From IMG/VR virus record IMGVR_UViG_3300046777_000513, positions 1 through 42,192 of that record: a stretch of 42,192 nt of DNA. One strand, given 5' to 3'. Under the pieces are notes generated by a model that was not told where the DNA came from, ran no database searches, and saw only the letters and a list, made by a program, of their open reading frames with translations. The position numbers and the translations under genes are program-made. Below, one piece after another: positions 2,114 through 40,374 of the stretch (position 1 is the first letter of the stretch; every line of letters starts with the position of its first letter). The DNA is from a virus.

Positions 2114-2254
2114 AATCCGTAGGGATTTCAATTGGTTATGTGGCTGATGGCTGAGAGATTGAGGCTTAAAATCCCTCGGCCGCAAGGCTGTCCGGGTTCG
2201 ACCCCCGGTGTCCGCACCACCTCTAACCTCTTGAAATTCCTACGGAATTAGAGG
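2114..2254 (+). repeat. Inverted and direct repeats flanking the attP core
   Basis: The 16 bases at 2116-2131 and the reverse complement of 2231-2246 match at 15 of 16 positions (TCCGTAGGGATTTCAA against TTGAAATTCCTACGGA). CCTCTAA (2220-2226) and TTAGAGG (2248-2254) form a further local stem. GACCAAAAA also occurs directly repeated at 2104-2112 and 2256-2264, just outside. The arrangement is centred on the tRNA fragment. Confidence 0.6.
2165..2219 (+). other. attP: attP core: 3' part of a tRNA-Leu(UAA) gene
   Basis: The sequence runs from an anticodon loop CTTAAAA (anticodon TAA) through a variable arm, a T arm (CCGGG, TTCGACC, CCCGG) and the 3' acceptor strand TGTCCGC followed by ACCA. It resembles bacterial tRNA-Leu(UAA) 3' halves. 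Upstream bases do not supply the 5' acceptor strand (GCGGACA needed) or a paired anticodon stem, so this is not a complete tRNA gene. Phages integrating in tRNA genes carry such a 3' part to restore the host tRNA. The crossover is expected in the anticodon-loop region. Confidence 0.88.
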
Positions 2255-2469: not shown

Positions 2470-4986
2470 ATGACTATACATCAAGTTACACAAGAAGACG
2501 ACTTAATGACGACCCAACTTAGACTTGAAGAAGAGATGACTAAGCGTGGTCAGGAACGTTATTTGCGTGACATTTCCAAAGCCAAGTCTTCACAACGGGA
2601 AGAAGGTACTGCCTACGGACAGGCAATCTTGGCTCATCGTCTTGAATTGCTCTCAGACGGCATCCGTCAGTGGGTCGAGGAGACTTCTAAGGGTGTCGCG
2701 GGTAACCGTAACCTAGCCTTCAAGAAAATCAGGGATATGGATCCAAATACCTTAGCGTTCCTAACCCTGAAGCATGTTCTCTCTGGGGTATCTTCCATCC
2801 GTACGGTTCAATTCGTCGGGGTAGCCATTGGCACTGCCGTCGAGGATGAGCTGAGATTCGCTAAGATCCGTGAGACGGAGAAGAAGAAGTACGAGAAGCT
2901 TGTGACGGGGGCTAAGAAGCGTTCCAGCTACCACTACAAGCACATCTATGCCGTCCGTCAGGCACAACGTGTGGATAACTGGGAAAAGTGGACACGGACT
3001 GATCGTCTCCACGTAGGGGTCAAACTCCTAGACATCTGCATGGCAACCGTGGGCATCGTTGAGATCACCCACCAGCGTGTCGAGAAGGATCAGGCTCTCA
3101 AATACGTCCGTGCCTTGCCTGAGACCATCGAATGGATCGAACGTAAGAACGAGATCACTCAGTTCCTCCGTCCTGTCTATGAACCCATGGTTGTCCAGCC
3201 AAGGGACTGGGAAGACCCGTTCACAGGTGGCTACATCAGCTCCAACATCAAGCCCCTGAAGCTCGTGAAGACCAAGAACAGGGCTTACCTGGACGAGCTG
3301 AAGAACATGGACATGCCGATTGTCTATGAGGCTGTGAACGCCATTCAGAGAACCCCATGGCAGATCAATAGTCAGGTCATGGAGGTCATGAGCAGCCTTT
3401 GGGACAATGGCTCTGTCCTAGGTGGCCTTCCTCCTCGTGAGGGGATCCCTATGCCTCAGGTTCCGTTCGACATTGAGACGAACGAGCAAGCCAAGAAGGA
3501 GTATCGGATCCAAGCAGCAAAGACCCACATGCAGAACCTATCAATTCTAGGACAAAGGATTGGGTTCTCGATTGCATTGGGTATCGCCAAACGCTTCGAG
3601 CCTTATCGAAAGATCTTCTTTCCCTACCAGTTGGACTTCAGGGGTCGGATCTATGCGGTGCCACACCTGAACCCTCAGGGATCTGACTATCAGAAGGCAC
3701 TCTTGCGTTTCGCAAACGGCAAACCACTCGGTGAAGAGGGGTGGAAATGGTTGGCTATCCACGGTGCAAACGTGGCTGGCTATGACAAAGCGTCCCTAGA
3801 GGACAGAGTGAATTGGGTACAAGACAATGAAGAGGAAATTATCCGTATTGCAACTGATCCCTTCAATCACAGAGGCTGGGCAAGTTCTGTTGGTGGGGTT
3901 GAGATTGACAAGCCCTGGCAGTTCTTGGCTTTTTGTTTCGAGTGGAAGGGTTACTGCGAGTATGGTGATACGTTCGTATCGAAACTGCCCGTGGCTATGG
4001 ACGGTTCATGCTCTGGCATCCAACACTTCTCAGCAATGCTCAGGGACAAAACCGGTGGCTCAGCAGTTAACTTGGTTCCGCAAGATCTTCCAGCAGATGT
4101 GTACCAGCTGGTTGCCAACAAAGTCCTCGAACAAATCAACGAAGACATCGTCTCTGGGACAGAAGACGGATTGGGACACACTGACGAAGGTACAGCATAC
4201 GTGGTCGAAGGGACGAAGACCCTTGCCGCCCAGTGGCTGCGATTCGGAATTACGAGAAAAGTAACCAAGCGTTCGGTGATGACGCTGGCCTATGGATCGA
4301 AGGAGTACGGATTCAAAGAGCAATTGATGGAGGACATCATTCGTCCTGCCAAACAATCGGGGAAAGAGTTTCCATTCTCGGGGGATGGTTATCGTGCTGC
4401 AGCTTACATGGCCAAGGCCATTTGGGTTGCCGTGAATAAGACACTCGTAAAAGCTTCGGAAGCCATGAAGTGGCTCCAACACGCTGCATCTCTAGCTGCA
4501 GGAGAACAGTTGCCAGTTCGCTGGACAACACCTGTCGGTTTCCCTGTGATGCAAGCGTATCCAGATCTAGCCATTCGTACCGTCAAAACAGCTATCAACG
4601 GAAAGACCGTGAAGCTGACGATGTACAAAGAGCAGGACAAGCTAGATCGTCGAAAGCAATCCCAAGGTATAGCACCCAACTATGTTCACTCATGCGATGC
4701 AGCACACATGATGCTGACCGTTGTTCGAGCGAAACAAGCTGGGATCAATAACTTCGCAATGATCCATGATTCCTTTGGAACAACTGCTGGTGATGTTGAA
4801 GATCTCTACCACGTAGTGAGAGAGAGCTTTGTCGAGATGTATGAAGACATCCCTGTCTTAGAAAACTTCAGGGACGATATTGTTCAGCAATTAAGTGACG
4901 ATGCGAAGTTAAACTTAGAACCGTTACCTGCACGTGGCGAACTGGATTTGAGTAAGGTGTGCCAGTCACGCTACTGCTTTGCCTAG
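2470..4986 (+). CDS. T7-like single-subunit DNA-directed RNA polymerase
   Basis: An 838-residue enzyme (T7 gp1 has 883) that transcribes phage genes in the cytoplasm. Motif A is VAMDGSCSGIQHF with catalytic Asp511. Motif B is VTKRSVMTLAYGS with Lys600 and Tyr608 at the spacing of T7 K631 and Y639. Motif C is AMIHDSFG with His766 and Asp767. The C-terminus ends in CFA, comparable to the T7 terminal FAFA foot. A GAGAGAA sequence precedes the ATG at 2470. The gene is preceded by a phage promoter copy and an 18-bp palindrome, suggesting both autoregulation and repression, and is followed by a hairpin. Placing it after an integrase and attP is usual in temperate T7-like phages. Confidence 0.98.
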   Translation: MTIHQVTQEDDLMTTQLRLEEEMTKRGQERYLRDISKAKSSQREEGTAYGQAILAHRLELLSDGIRQWVEETSKGVAGNRNLAFKKIRDMDPNTLAFLTLKHVLSGVSSIRTVQFVGVAIGTAVEDELRFAKIRETEKKKYEKLVTGAKKRSSYHYKHIYAVRQAQRVDNWEKWTRTDRLHVGVKLLDICMATVGIVEITHQRVEKDQALKYVRALPETIEWIERKNEITQFLRPVYEPMVVQPRDWEDPFTGGYISSNIKPLKLVKTKNRAYLDELKNMDMPIVYEAVNAIQRTPWQINSQVMEVMSSLWDNGSVLGGLPPREGIPMPQVPFDIETNEQAKKEYRIQAAKTHMQNLSILGQRIGFSIALGIAKRFEPYRKIFFPYQLDFRGRIYAVPHLNPQGSDYQKALLRFANGKPLGEEGWKWLAIHGANVAGYDKASLEDRVNWVQDNEEEIIRIATDPFNHRGWASSVGGVEIDKPWQFLAFCFEWKGYCEYGDTFVSKLPVAMDGSCSGIQHFSAMLRDKTGGSAVNLVPQDLPADVYQLVANKVLEQINEDIVSGTEDGLGHTDEGTAYVVEGTKTLAAQWLRFGITRKVTKRSVMTLAYGSKEYGFKEQLMEDIIRPAKQSGKEFPFSGDGYRAAAYMAKAIWVAVNKTLVKASEAMKWLQHAASLAAGEQLPVRWTTPVGFPVMQAYPDLAIRTVKTAINGKTVKLTMYKEQDKLDRRKQSQGIAPNYVHSCDAAHMMLTVVRAKQAGINNFAMIHDSFGTTAGDVEDLYHVVRESFVEMYEDIPVLENFRDDIVQQLSDDAKLNLEPLPARGELDLSKVCQSRYCFA

Positions 4987-36203: not shown

Positions 36204-37871
36204 ATGGATAATAAACATCCCGTATTAAAGGACTTTAGAGTCTTTGCTCACGTGATCTGGCAGCACTTAAACTTGCCAAACCCTACTCCAGTACAAAACG
36301 ACATATGTTTGTACCTACAGAATGGCCCTAAGCGTTCCATCATTGAGGCTTTCCGTGGTGTAGGTAAGTCATTCCTAACCTCAGCCTTCGTTTGTTGGGT
36401 TCTATTAAACGACCCACAGAAGAAGATCTTGGTTGTCTCTGCCTCAAAGGAGCGAGCTGATGCTTTCTCCACCTTCGTCAAGCGATTGATCAATGAAGTA
36501 CCGATCCTTCAGCACTTGCGTCCTAAGGAAGGCCAAAGAGACTCTGTCATTGCCTTTGACGTTGGACCTTCGATTGCCGACCACTCACCCTCAGTGAAGT
36601 CTGTAGGTGTCACAGGTCAGCTTACAGGTTCTCGTGCAGACATTATCGTTGCTGACGATATCGAAACACCTGGTAACTCTGCCACTCAGATGATGCGAGA
36701 TAAGCTCTCAGAGTTGGTCAAGGAGTTCGACTCTATTCTGAAGCCTCTAGATACATCCCGTATCATCTACCTAGGCACTCCACAGCTAGAGATGTCTCTC
36801 TACAATGCTCTTGGAGAACGTGGTTATGAGACCCGTATCTGGCCAGCTCAGTACCCAGAGATCCCTAAGGTTCCATCTTACCAAGGTAAGTTAGCCCCTT
36901 GGATCACTCTGGCACTAGAGCAAGATGCAACGCTTGTAGGAAAACCAACTGATCCCCTTCGATTTGGAGACGAGGATCTCTTGGAACGTAGAGCATCGTA
37001 TGGACGTGCTGGCTTTGCCTTGCAGTTCATGCTCGACACATCTCTTAGTGATGCTGATCGATACCCACTCAAGGTTCAAGACTTGGTTGTGATGAACCTT
37101 AATCCCACCATGGGACACCACAAGATTGCTTGGGCTGCTGCACCAGAGTTGTGCATCAACGATATCCCTAACGTGGCTCTTACAGGTGACAGGTTCTACA
37201 GACCTATGTGGCACTCAGAGGAAATGTCTGAGTACACTGGTTGTGTCATGGCAATCGACCCCTCAGGTAGGGGTACCGACGAGACAGGCTATGCAATCAT
37301 CAAGGTACTAGCAGGTAACATGTTCCTGATGGCCTGTGGTGGTCTAGCAGGTGGATACTCAGATGAGACCTTAGAGACCCTCTCTAGGCTCGCTAAGATG
37401 CACCAAGTGAACCATGTCATTGTCGAAGCTAACTTCGGTGATGGTATGTACACCAAGCTCCTCACACCAGTTATGGCTAGGTTCCATAAGTGTCTCATTG
37501 AGGAAGTGAAACATTCCTCTCAGAAGGAACTTCGTATCATCGATACACTCGAACCAGTGATGTCTACGCACAGGCTCATAGTGGATCAGAAGGTGATCGA
37601 TAGGGACTTTGAGTCAGCTAAGGATCCTAAGTATTCTCTGTTCTATCAGATGACACGTATCACCAAAGACAGAGGTGCATTGATCCATGACGATAGACTA
37701 GATGCTCTCTCAATGGCTGTAGCCTACTGGGTAGAACACATGGCTAGAGACAACGATAAGGCTGTCTATCAAATGAAAGACGATGCTCTAAAGAATGAGC
37801 TAAAGAAATTCATGGGTAGTGTCTTAGGATCAAAACCTAAGAAGTCTGGTTGGATTAATTCAAGTCGTTGA
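36204..37871 (+). CDS. terL: Terminase large subunit (T7 gp19-like)
   Basis: A 555-residue packaging motor (T7 gp19 has 586). The ATPase has Walker A FRGVGKS at 50-56 and Walker B IIVADDIE with Asp151-Asp152. The RNase H-like nuclease has Asp352 (MAIDPSGRGTDETG), Glu408 (IVEANFGDG) and Asp496, Asp497 and Asp500 (HDDRLDALSMAVAYW). It cuts concatemers and pumps DNA into the prohead. No clear Shine-Dalgarno sequence precedes ATG 36204; translation may depend on upstream terS. Phage promoter copy 4 and the presumed genome end follow. Confidence 0.97.
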   Translation: MDNKHPVLKDFRVFAHVIWQHLNLPNPTPVQNDICLYLQNGPKRSIIEAFRGVGKSFLTSAFVCWVLLNDPQKKILVVSASKERADAFSTFVKRLINEVPILQHLRPKEGQRDSVIAFDVGPSIADHSPSVKSVGVTGQLTGSRADIIVADDIETPGNSATQMMRDKLSELVKEFDSILKPLDTSRIIYLGTPQLEMSLYNALGERGYETRIWPAQYPEIPKVPSYQGKLAPWITLALEQDATLVGKPTDPLRFGDEDLLERRASYGRAGFALQFMLDTSLSDADRYPLKVQDLVVMNLNPTMGHHKIAWAAAPELCINDIPNVALTGDRFYRPMWHSEEMSEYTGCVMAIDPSGRGTDETGYAIIKVLAGNMFLMACGGLAGGYSDETLETLSRLAKMHQVNHVIVEANFGDGMYTKLLTPVMARFHKCLIEEVKHSSQKELRIIDTLEPVMSTHRLIVDQKVIDRDFESAKDPKYSLFYQMTRITKDRGALIHDDRLDALSMAVAYWVEHMARDNDKAVYQMKDDALKNELKKFMGSVLGSKPKKSGWINSSR

Positions 37872-38582: not shown

Positions 38583-38701
38583 CCTAAAGACAACCTCAAG
38601 TCATCCTCAAGCTCACCTCAAGACACTCACTCTTTTTCCTCAAGTCATCCTCAAGTCATCTTCACGCTCTCTTCAACTCACACTCAAAGATGCACCCAAA
38701 G
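38583..38701 (+). repeat. Phased CCTCAAG heptamer array (T7 SRL-like)
   Basis: Exact CCTCAAG at 38594, 38605, 38616, 38638 and 38649, all multiples of 11 bases apart. CCTAAAG lies at 38583 in the same register. Degenerate copies CTTCACG (38660), CTTCAAC (38671) and ACTCAAA (38682) keep the register, and CCCAAAG is at 38695. T7 and T3 carry arrays of a CCTAAAG-like 7-mer just inside their terminal repeats; this array has the same word, spacing type and place before the early genes. Confidence 0.85.
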
Positions 38702-39038: not shown

Positions 39039-39059
39039 GATTAACTAGGAGATTACAAA

Positions 39060-39233: not shown

Positions 39234-39400
39234 TGAAAACATTTAAAGTTTATAGTTCGCAGATTGTCTACCATGTAGCAGAAGTAGAGGCTGAAGACGC
39301 AGAGCAAGCGGGAGAGCTAGCCTACAAACAAGACTTAAATTGGAGATGGTTTGATTGTGCAGAGTGGCAAATTGACGAAGTAGAGGAGATTACAGAATGA
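39233..39400 (+). CDS. 55-residue acidic early protein
   Basis: Coupled on both sides (TAATG before, ATGA after). The pattern (MKTFKVYSSQIVYHVAEVEA, then EDAEQAGELAYKQD and ending VEEITE) resembles the small phage proteins of the form strand-strand-helix-strand in which an N-terminal YVxAxxxEEAxxxA motif is followed by a short acidic strand. The whole protein is acidic. Function unknown. Confidence 0.65.
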   Translation: MKTFKVYSSQIVYHVAEVEAEDAEQAGELAYKQDLNWRWFDCAEWQIDEVEEITE

Positions 39401-39858
39401 GAACAAACAACATTACACCTGATGAGGTTCTAGATTCACGAGACATTATCGACAGAGCACAAGAGCTGATTGAGAGCTACTTGCCCACATTCAATGAGCA
39501 CATTCTAGCCACTTACCCTGAGGCTGAAGAGATTGACGAAAGCGACGCTCTACATGATGAGCCTTTCCTCGATTGGTTGAAGAGCAAGGGAGACGACGAA
39601 GAGGCACTAGAGCTGATTGCCCTTATCGAGGTCTGGAGAGAGTGCGAGAACTATTCGGACTGGTCGTATGGTGAGGTGCTTATTCGTGATGACTATTTCA
39701 CGGACTACACCACAGAGATGCTCAAGGATTGCGGATATATCCCTCACGATATGCCCTCATGGATTGAGATTGATTACGAGGCTACCGCAGACAATGTAAA
39801 GGTGGACTATTCACAGGTCGAGTTCATGGATAACACCTACTGGATACGCAACTGCTAA
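39397..39858 (+). CDS. Highly acidic early protein, possible DNA-mimic
   Basis: A 153-residue protein with 40 Asp/Glu against 10 Lys/Arg (net about -30). The C-terminal half (DWSYGEVLIRDDYFTDYTTE, then WIEIDYEATADNVKVDYSQV and TYWIR) is a pattern I associate with conserved early proteins of several podoviruses. Its charge, size and place in the early region resemble T7 Ocr (117 residues), the DNA mimic that blocks type I restriction; sequence similarity to Ocr is not evident, so an antirestriction role is only a hypothesis. The stop codon lies one base before the hammerhead-type element. Confidence 0.72.
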   Translation: MRTNNITPDEVLDSRDIIDRAQELIESYLPTFNEHILATYPEAEEIDESDALHDEPFLDWLKSKGDDEEALELIALIEVWRECENYSDWSYGEVLIRDDYFTDYTTEMLKDCGYIPHDMPSWIEIDYEATADNVKVDYSQVEFMDNTYWIRNC

Positions 39859-39859
39859 A

Positions 39860-39911
39860 GGCTAACTGATGAGACCTGATTGGTCGAAACTGTCGGGAGA
39901 CAGTCTTAGTC
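39860..39911 (+). ncRNA. Hammerhead ribozyme, type I
   Basis: All conserved parts are present in order. Stem I 5' strand GGCTAA (39860-39865) is followed by core CTGATGA (39866-39872). Stem II is GACC/GGTC (39873-39876 with 39882-39885, loop TGATT), then core GAA (39886-39888). Stem III is ACTGTC/GACAGT (39889-39894 with 39899-39904, loop GGGA), which includes the required A-T closing pair. The cleavage-site C is 39905, and stem I 3' strand TTAGTC (39906-39911) pairs with the first strand with one G-T. Only stem I is open, making it type I. Predicted self-cleavage lies between 39905 and 39906, 26 bases before the next ATG. Confidence 0.92.
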
Positions 39912-39931
39912 AAACACTAGGAGAAAACAAA

Positions 39932-40105
39932 ATGACACAAACACAACTCACCCTCTTACAAGAGGTATTCTTTGATATATGCGATTTACTGGATAGCCGA
40001 GAGGTGGACCGCATCAAGTTAAAGTCTTTTGATGAGTTCGAAACCCTTGGGGAGTTCCTACAAGAGCAAAAACAAAAGCTTGCTCAGATTGAGGGGGCGG
40101 TATGA
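39932..40105 (+). CDS. 57-residue hypothetical protein downstream of the ribozyme
   Basis: I chose ATG 39932 because TAGGAG lies 9 bases upstream. An in-frame ATG at 39869 is the ATG of the ribozyme core and has no binding site. The product is helical and acidic (LLQEVFFDICDLLDSREVDR, then EFLQEQKQKLAQIEG). After ribozyme cleavage its message would begin at 39906 with a short leader still carrying the binding site. Overlaps the next gene as ATGA. Confidence 0.65.
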   Translation: MTQTQLTLLQEVFFDICDLLDSREVDRIKLKSFDEFETLGEFLQEQKQKLAQIEGAV

Positions 40106-40374
40106 CCCACAAAGAACGCATAATGACCCTCTTAATTGACAACGGGACAACCAAAACCAAAACCCTAGGAGACCTCTCCGGTCTCTCTCGTAATCTCTGT
40201 CACAATGCCCTCAAGTCACTCTTGCGGGATGGACTGGTGACATACGAACGCAAGGGACTGGATGTCTTTTGGTCTCCTGTCTTTGATGACTTAGAGCCAA
40301 AGCAGATATGGGCTAATTTCGTCCCAACCAAAGCAAAGCACACCCACCCATTGATGACCGCATGGTTTAATTAA
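40102..40374 (+). CDS. Winged-helix DNA-binding protein
   Basis: A 90-residue protein coupled to its predecessor (ATGA). Residues 2-50 read as a winged helix: THKERIMTLLIDNGTTKTKT, LGDLSGLSRNLCHNALKSLL as the helix-turn-helix, and RDGLVTYERKGLDVFW as the wing. The C-terminus is an unassigned tail with WANFVPTKAKHTHP. It could regulate early genes or the host. Alternative: a replication-associated adaptor. Confidence 0.72.
   Translation: MTHKERIMTLLIDNGTTKTKTLGDLSGLSRNLCHNALKSLLRDGLVTYERKGLDVFWSPVFDDLEPKQIWANFVPTKAKHTHPLMTAWFN

What the first reader, a model, noticed from the sequence alone, without database searches (positions are those of the whole stretch)
39860..39911. Type I hammerhead ribozyme between two early genes of a T7-like phage
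Seen directly: CTGATGA core, stem II with G-C closing pair, GAA, stem III closed by A-T, cleavage-site C at 39905 and a 6-bp stem I all occur with no conserved position violated. Known: hammerheads occur in scattered bacterial and prophage DNA. T7 itself processes early mRNA with host RNase III at intergenic hairpins. Inference: this phage uses self-cleavage to separate the message of the acidic early protein from the downstream genes, leaving a 3' hairpin on one side and a 26-base leader with its binding site on the other.
Basis: partly seen in the sequence, partly recalled or inferred. Interest (0 to 1): 0.93.

Follow-up and report, generated by a model that had tools for sequence, protein, structure and literature searches.

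The report
Self-cutting RNA between phage genes
Between two early genes of a T7-like virus of bacteria lies a complete hammerhead ribozyme, a piece of RNA that cuts itself; hundreds of relatives sit in the same stop–ribozyme–start position in other phages, which suggests that these viruses cut their own messages into separate gene pieces without needing a host enzyme.

Summary
Window 39860-39911 (+) is a complete type I hammerhead with every core position canonical, stems of 6/4/6 bp, and cleavage predicted after C39905. A covariance model built without this phage or its kin gives 71 bits, E 2.8e-17, as the only hit in the window. Related phages keep it at the same place between unrelated genes; in one, stem II is wholly replaced but still pairs. 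In viral contigs, 103 of 105 distinct matches to the bare core-plus-loop pattern form all three stems. Of 301 hammerheads with enough flank, 258 lie between an upstream stop codon and a start codon; the median cleavage-to-start distance is 26 nt, exactly 26 here. Random sites give about 16%. Cultured T7-like Pelagibacter phages carry it in their early regions. Most likely function: self-processing of early mRNA between an ArdA-like antirestriction gene and the next gene. Cleavage itself is untested here. Hammerheads between phage genes, even beside ardA, were published in 2011, with cleavage shown in vitro and in vivo. Possibly new: the compact subclass with a covarying loop II–flank contact, missed by current Rfam thresholds, and its stereotyped layout.

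The parts
39397..39858 (+). upstream early gene, ArdA-like antirestriction protein, 153 aa, pI 4.05; stop TAA 39856-39858
   Evidence: phrog_25535 2.9e-20; tblastn to proteins annotated antirestriction / ArdA-like; no Pfam hit; pI
39859..39859 (+). A just 5' of stem I (class-conserved; predicted partner of the last U of loop II)
   Evidence: A in 94% of stem-I-of-6 elements; A/U swap covaries with loop II
39860..39865 (+). stem I, 5' strand GGCUAA
39866..39872 (+). hammerhead core CUGAUGA
39873..39885 (+). stem II GACC/GGUC with loop UGAUU (fits class motif UNANU)
39886..39888 (+). core GAA
39889..39904 (+). stem III ACUGUC/GACAGU with GNRA loop GGGA; would be the 3'-terminal hairpin of the upstream product
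39905..39905 (+). C17, predicted cleavage between 39905 and 39906
   Evidence: hammerhead NUH rule; cleavage itself not tested
39906..39911 (+). stem I, 3' strand UUAGUC = first bases of the downstream product
39912..39913 (+). AA just 3' of stem I (class-conserved)
39906..39931 (+). 26-nt leader left on the downstream mRNA, with Shine-Dalgarno AGGAG 39919-39923
   Evidence: class median 26 nt
39932..40105 (+). downstream early gene, 57 aa, unknown
   Evidence: no relatives found
40102..40374 (+). second downstream gene, winged-helix protein; its homologue is also downstream of the ribozyme in L128
   Evidence: PF13412

Best explanation
It is a functional cis-acting type I hammerhead ribozyme of a compact phage subclass: stem I of 6 bp, stem II of 4 bp, pentaloop UNANU, conserved A before and AA after stem I. 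It folds as the nascent early transcript passes 39913 and cuts after C39905. The cut frees the ArdA-like gene's mRNA with a GNRA-capped hairpin and a 2',3'-cyclic phosphate at its 3' end. The downstream mRNA starts with a 5'-hydroxyl and a 26-nt leader holding its ribosome-binding site. It thus does what host RNase III does between T7 early genes, without the host enzyme. Shown here: sequence, structure, conservation, covariation and context. Inferred: cleavage, end chemistry (from hammerhead chemistry in general) and the effect on mRNA stability or expression.
For: Canonical core and stems. Held-out covariance model 71 bits, E 2.8e-17, sole hit in the window. Kin keep it: L128 65 bits, L168 61 bits with stem II replaced GACC-TGATT-GGTC by GGGTT-GAT-GACCC, L177 35 bits with its own stem I. 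The ribozyme plus leader is an 85-88% identical island; in the window and L128 the upstream genes and the immediate downstream genes have no detectable similarity. Of 105 distinct matches to a pattern that demands no pairing beyond one G-C, 104 pair in stem II and 103 in stems I and III. Stems I-III covary, 13 of 15 pairs with double changes. Loop II and the flanks covary, 80 to 4 with no exceptions. 258 of 301 sit between an upstream stop and a start codon within 100 nt, against about 50 of 319 random sites and 33 of 300 antisense; 72 of 72 multi-copy loci use one strand. At transcript ends 39913-39921 the hammerhead is the minimum-energy fold. The same model also hits phage PaP3, where Perreault et al. 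2011 reported an active hammerhead.
Against: No cleavage, 5'-end mapping or RNA-seq was available. Once the Shine-Dalgarno region is transcribed, a rival hairpin beats the hammerhead fold by 0.9-1.6 kcal/mol in a model without tertiary energy. Only 3 of 58 relative loci scanned, many of them partial, carry it, so it is dispensable across the clade. The benefit of cutting here is not shown.
Confidence: 0.85

Rival explanations
1. Coding coincidence: the gene really starts at ATG 39869 inside the core (SD-like AAAGG upstream), and the ribozyme shape is a by-product of coding sequence.
For: ORF 39869-40105 is open and in frame with the 39932 start; the same holds in L128.
Against: In L168 that frame is closed before the gene start's frame is reached while the ribozyme is intact. 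Across the class the core-ATG frame meets a stop before the next ATG in 205 of 274 and is open in frame in only 21. Base pairing, not codons, is preserved. A better SD (AGGAG, 8 nt) precedes 39932.
Confidence: 0.03
2. The element is a structural boundary (3' stabilising hairpin, terminator or RNase III substrate) whose hammerhead core is a relic, and it does not cut.
For: Stem III is a strong GNRA hairpin; T7 uses hairpins at such boundaries (general knowledge).
Against: The catalytic core is strictly kept in the kin while loops and stem II change; no terminator is predicted at the element; the 6-bp stem III is short for RNase III (general knowledge).
Confidence: 0.06
3. The ribozyme mainly serves RNA ligation: released one-gene segments are re-ligated or circularised through shared stem I arms.
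For: In multi-copy phages stem I is far more alike within a contig than expected (mean distance 1.00 against 2.63, lowest permutation 2.12), and 54% of copy pairs can swap strands against 10% between contigs; stems II and III are less homogenised.
Against: The window has one copy only. Duplication or a constraint on the leader could give the same pattern. Perreault et al. 2011 looked for spliced or circular products and saw none (PMC3088659).
Confidence: 0.05
4. The conserved 77-80 nt ribozyme-leader island is kept chiefly as a joint for swapping early-gene cassettes by homologous recombination.
For: 85-88% identity across the ribozyme and leader in L128 and L168, with neighbouring genes that show no similarity in the tested pair.
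Against: Compensatory changes show selection on RNA structure; a joint needs only DNA identity (L168 stem II).
Confidence: 0.05
5. RNA switch: uncut RNA hides the Shine-Dalgarno in a hairpin with the stem I strand, and cutting exposes it.
For: In the window the SD bases are unpaired with probability 0.01, 0.01, 0.03, 0.55, 0.94 in uncut unconstrained RNA and 0.53-0.80 in the cut product; L128 has the same complement.
Against: The class shows no enrichment (helix 4.21 against 4.12 with swapped leaders; SD accessibility 0.63 against 0.61). The ACTAGGAG context also occurs at 39044 without a ribozyme, and L168 lacks it.
Confidence: 0.04

Closest known systems
Prophage hammerhead arrays of Perreault et al. 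2011 (PMC3088659), e.g. Agrobacterium tumefaciens with tail-ardA-marR-integrase, and Legionella ardA
   Same: Hammerheads between short phage genes, adjacent to ardA, near marR and integrase as in this window (ArdA-like 39397, MarR-like 702, integrase 1021); proposed to process phage transcripts; cleavage shown in vitro and in E. coli
   Different: Those are prophage arrays, and their supplementary alignments could not be read here, so identity of subclass is unknown. This one is a single copy in a phage contig with T7-like gene content
Rfam RF00163 Hammerhead_1 (type I)
   Same: Same core, same open stem I topology
   Different: Scores 13.9 bits against a cutoff of 34
Rfam RF03152 RAGATH-1 hammerhead
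   Same: Best Rfam hit: short stem I, same core, hairpin stem III
   Different: 24.8 bits against a cutoff of 56.3; its model has a 5-bp stem I and only one modelled stem II pair
Type I hammerheads of Pelagibacter phages HTVC019P, HTVC201P, HTVC022P, HTVC131P, HTVC304P, Jormungand (Pelagivirus, T7-like)
   Same: Same 6/4/5 architecture, early region, upstream of MarR-integrase-RNA polymerase
   Different: Stem III of 10 bp; no annotated gene starts 26 nt after the cut; HTVC019P also has a type III hammerhead
T7 early mRNA processing by host RNase III
   Same: Cuts early polycistronic mRNA between genes, beginning with an anti-restriction gene (0.3 in T7; ArdA-like here)
   Different: T7 uses a host protein enzyme (general knowledge); here the RNA is predicted to cut itself

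Membership tests
Hammerhead ribozyme (type I) | Core CUGANGA...GAA with A15.1-U16.1 and an NUH cleavage triplet | tested here: met
Hammerhead ribozyme (type I) | Three stems, stem I open-ended, stems II and III closed by loops | tested here: met
   (minimum-energy fold of the 55-mer)
Hammerhead ribozyme (type I) | Stem pairing conserved through compensatory change | tested here: met
   kin; class; unbiased matches
Hammerhead ribozyme (type I) | Tertiary contact between loop II and the stem I region | tested here: inconclusive
   Covariation of loop II ends with flanking A/A or U/U supports a contact; no 3D test
Hammerhead ribozyme (type I) | Self-cleavage activity | not testable with these tools
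   needs in vitro transcription
Rfam RF00163 Hammerhead_1 | Score at or above the gathering cutoff of 34 bits | tested here: not met
   13.9 bits. PaP3, with a reported active hammerhead, also gives no Rfam hammerhead hit, so this shows the limit of the model, not absence of a hammerhead
Rfam RF03152 RAGATH-1 hammerhead | Score at or above the gathering cutoff of 56.3 bits | tested here: not met
   24.8 bits
Intrinsic terminator | G+C hairpin followed by a T run | tested here: not met
   No terminator-like site at the element

The most novel reading that the evidence does not exclude
A structurally distinct, previously uncatalogued subclass of phage hammerheads serves as a host-independent, gene-by-gene punctuation of phage mRNA (stop codon, ribozyme, ~26-nt leader, start codon; up to 15 copies per contig), and T7-like phages with the MarR-integrase-RNA polymerase layout use it in place of RNase III sites.
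Probability: 0.45. Interest if true: 0.78.

Novelty: new member of a known kind. Interest (0 to 1): 0.62.

Why it matters
The role of prokaryotic hammerheads was called an open question in the 2017 review PMC6155905. The layout found here (a stop codon abutting or inside the ribozyme, a leader of nearly fixed length, same strand always, dissimilar neighbours around a conserved ribozyme) points to mRNA processing. Its presence in cultured phages (Pelagibacter HTVC019P group, Flavobacterium elemo phages, Cellulophaga phi19:3) makes that testable in infected cells. Current Rfam thresholds overlook the elements, so annotations of phage genomes miss them.

Tried and rejected
Direct DNA neighbours in named phages: none. 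Protein search with the ArdA-like gene in viral contigs: no relative; with the gene at 39932 in named phages: no hit. Coding explanation rejected (L168 frame, class-wide frame count). SD-sequestration as a class mechanism rejected. Antisense function disfavoured by context. Other hammerhead permutations in the window (types II, III): none. The two nearest named phages, Bordetella BB8 and Limnohabitans YIMV22061, lack it. Literature searches for this compact class in phages found only the general reports; Perreault's Dataset S1 could not be opened, so I do not claim the subclass is unpublished.

Full report
THE OBSERVATION. The sequence at 39860-39911 (+) was read and found independently by a descriptor scan. 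GGCTAA-CTGATGA-GACC-TGATT-GGTC-GAA-ACTGTC-GGGA-GACAGT-C-TTAGTC satisfies every hammerhead core rule: CUGANGA, G10.1-C11.1, GAA, A15.1-U16.1, U-H17. Stem I is open, so the topology is type I. The 55-mer 39859-39913 folds into exactly this structure at -17.0 kcal/mol. Nothing else on either strand of the 42 kb fits, including types II and III. In 60 first-order Markov genomes of the same size the loose descriptor fired once, and never with 16 or more base pairs.

WHY RFAM IS SILENT. At gathering scores Rfam 15 reports nothing in the window. On 86 bases alone it lists RAGATH-1-hammerhead (24.8 bits, cutoff 56.3) and Hammerhead_1 (13.9, cutoff 34). This is a limit of the models. Eighteen other loci with dozens of descriptor-perfect hammerheads also give no hammerhead hit, and neither does phage PaP3, in which Perreault et al. 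2011 reported an active hammerhead. I therefore built a model (R1) from 45 phage hammerheads, leaving out this window and its kin. It finds the window element at 71 bits, E 2.8e-17, and nothing else. R1 also hits PaP3 (33.5 bits).

THE PHAGE. The window is an IMG/VR record with T7-type RNA polymerase (2470-4986), head-tail adaptor, internal virion protein and terminase (36204-37871), a MarR-like protein (702) and a tyrosine integrase (1021). The nearest named phage by RNA polymerase is Bordetella phage vB_BbrP_BB8 at 65%. The ribozyme lies about 2 kb downstream of the terminase, in the early region. Stem I starts two bases after the stop codon of an acidic 153-aa protein (pI 4.05) related to phage proteins annotated as antirestriction/ArdA-like. 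A leader of 26 bases separates the predicted cut from the ATG of a 57-aa gene.

CLOSE RELATIVES. Three related contigs carry it. L128 (RNA polymerase 82% identical) has four base differences, all in loops or keeping a pair. L168 (terminase 87%) has stem II replaced from GACC/GGTC to GGGTT/GACCC, with a new loop and full pairing. L177 (terminase 81%) has its own stem I and stem II (R1 scores 65, 61 and 35 bits). Between the window and L128 or L168 the ribozyme plus leader is an island of 85-88% identity over 77-80 nt. The upstream proteins of the window and L128 share no significant similarity, nor do the immediate downstream proteins; DNA comparison shows only short patches outside the island. 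In L128 the stop codon of the upstream gene is the UGA of the core itself. Most relatives lack the element: 3 of 58 relative loci scanned have it, and many of those loci cover only part of the early region.

THE WIDER CLASS. Of 114 distinct matches with enough flank, 80 are type I, 33 type III and 1 neither. A second pattern fixing only core, loop positions and two A's in the stem I region, with no pairing demanded beyond G10.1-C11.1, gave 105 distinct viral matches; 104 pair in stem II and 103 form stems I and III. The pairs covary strongly; since alignment A1 was selected by a pairing descriptor, one search is the unbiased evidence. In 257 Gb of bacterial genomes the second pattern found only 12 contigs, and 1 of 200 Burkholderiales genomes had an R1 hit. 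This is a phage element.

A TERTIARY SIGNATURE. In the main architecture (stem I 6, stem II 4, loop II 5; 219 of 319 elements) loop II is UNANU, with A before and A after stem I. In the loci fetched before the second scan, where neither loop nor flank was demanded, 80 elements have A/A flanks with U..U loop ends and 4 have U/U flanks with A..A loop ends; no mixed case occurs (Fisher p 5e-7 ignoring relatedness; pair counts). One contig (L052) holds both kinds. I read this as a loop II-flank contact; its geometry is not established. The window has the common form.

GENE CONTEXT. Of 301 elements with flanking sequence, 266 have an upstream reading frame ending near or inside the ribozyme's 5' part, 289 have a start codon within 100 nt after cleavage (median 26, quartiles 23-32), and 258 have both; random sites gave 49-55 of 319 and the antisense 33 of 300. 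Commonest stop positions relative to the start of stem I are +10 (the UGA of CUGAUGA), 0, +1 and +6 (the UAA closing stem I). All 72 multi-copy loci have all copies on one strand. One contig holds 15 copies and another 9. Of 126 four-base stem III loops in the main architecture, 70 are GNRA and 40 YNCG.

OTHER T7-LIKE PHAGES. Six cultured Pelagibacter phages and one fosmid genome of the genus Pelagivirus carry the type I element in the early region before MarR-integrase-RNA polymerase; HTVC019P and S35-C6 also have a type III hammerhead, as does Rhizobium phage RHEph01, which has a type I too. Jormungand has annotated ArdA genes about 1.3 kb upstream of its ribozyme. T7 itself has gene 0.3, an anti-restriction gene, first in its early region.

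MECHANISM. As the nascent RNA passes 39913 the hammerhead is the minimum-energy fold; from about 39925 a rival hairpin is slightly better in a model without tertiary energy. Cleavage during transcription is therefore the likely mode (inference). Products would be an ardA mRNA ending in a GNRA hairpin with a 2',3'-cyclic phosphate, and a downstream mRNA with a 5'-hydroxyl and 26-nt leader. Such ends should resist 3' exonucleases and 5'-monophosphate-dependent RNase E respectively (established biochemistry, applied here by inference).

ALTERNATIVES. Coding by-product: in L168 the frame from the core ATG ends out of frame with the downstream gene, and class-wide 205 of 274 frames are closed before the next ATG. 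SD switch: seen in the window and L128 but not class-wide, and the same SD context occurs at 39044 without a ribozyme. Ligation or circularisation: stem I is unusually alike among copies of one phage, an unexplained fact that keeps the idea open, though Perreault et al. saw no such products and the window has one copy.

WHAT IS KNOWN. Perreault et al. 2011 (PMC3088659) reported hammerheads flanking single genes in prophages, including three around ardA in A. tumefaciens with tail, ardA, marR and integrase, active in vitro and in E. coli, and suggested transcript processing. The 2017 review PMC6155905 notes the phage link and calls the role open. So this is a new member of a known kind. What may go beyond is the subclass definition with its covarying contact, the stereotyped stop-ribozyme-leader-start layout, and its presence in cultured T7-like phages; prior cataloguing could not be excluded because the paper's alignments were not readable here.

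Noticed in passing
L360:971-1028, L388:11-67, L391:661-712: Type III hammerheads occur in the same T7-like phages (HTVC019P, S35-C6, Rhizobium phage RHEph01) a few kb upstream of the type I element.
   Followed up: partly
multi-copy loci such as L067, L007, L023, L034, L059: Stem I sequence is much more alike among copies within one phage (mean distance 1.00) than between phages (2.63), more so than stems II and III. Unexplained.
   Followed up: partly
window 38583-38681: 11-nt direct repeats (CCTCAAGTCAT-like) between the terminase and the first early genes, possibly the terminal repeat or a replication region.
   Followed up: no
window 2133-2215: tRNA-Phe with the unusual anticodon AAA directly between the integrase and RNA polymerase genes, possibly an attachment site.
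   Followed up: no
L389:44033-44113 and Rfam 15: The hammerhead that R1 finds in phage PaP3, where Perreault et al. reported an active one, is not found at Rfam gathering thresholds; Rfam under-reports phage hammerheads.
   Followed up: yes
L247 (Aliivibrio MAG contig, G014:C748): Eight compact hammerheads in about 4 kb on one contig binned as Aliivibrio; probably a phage contig.
   Followed up: no
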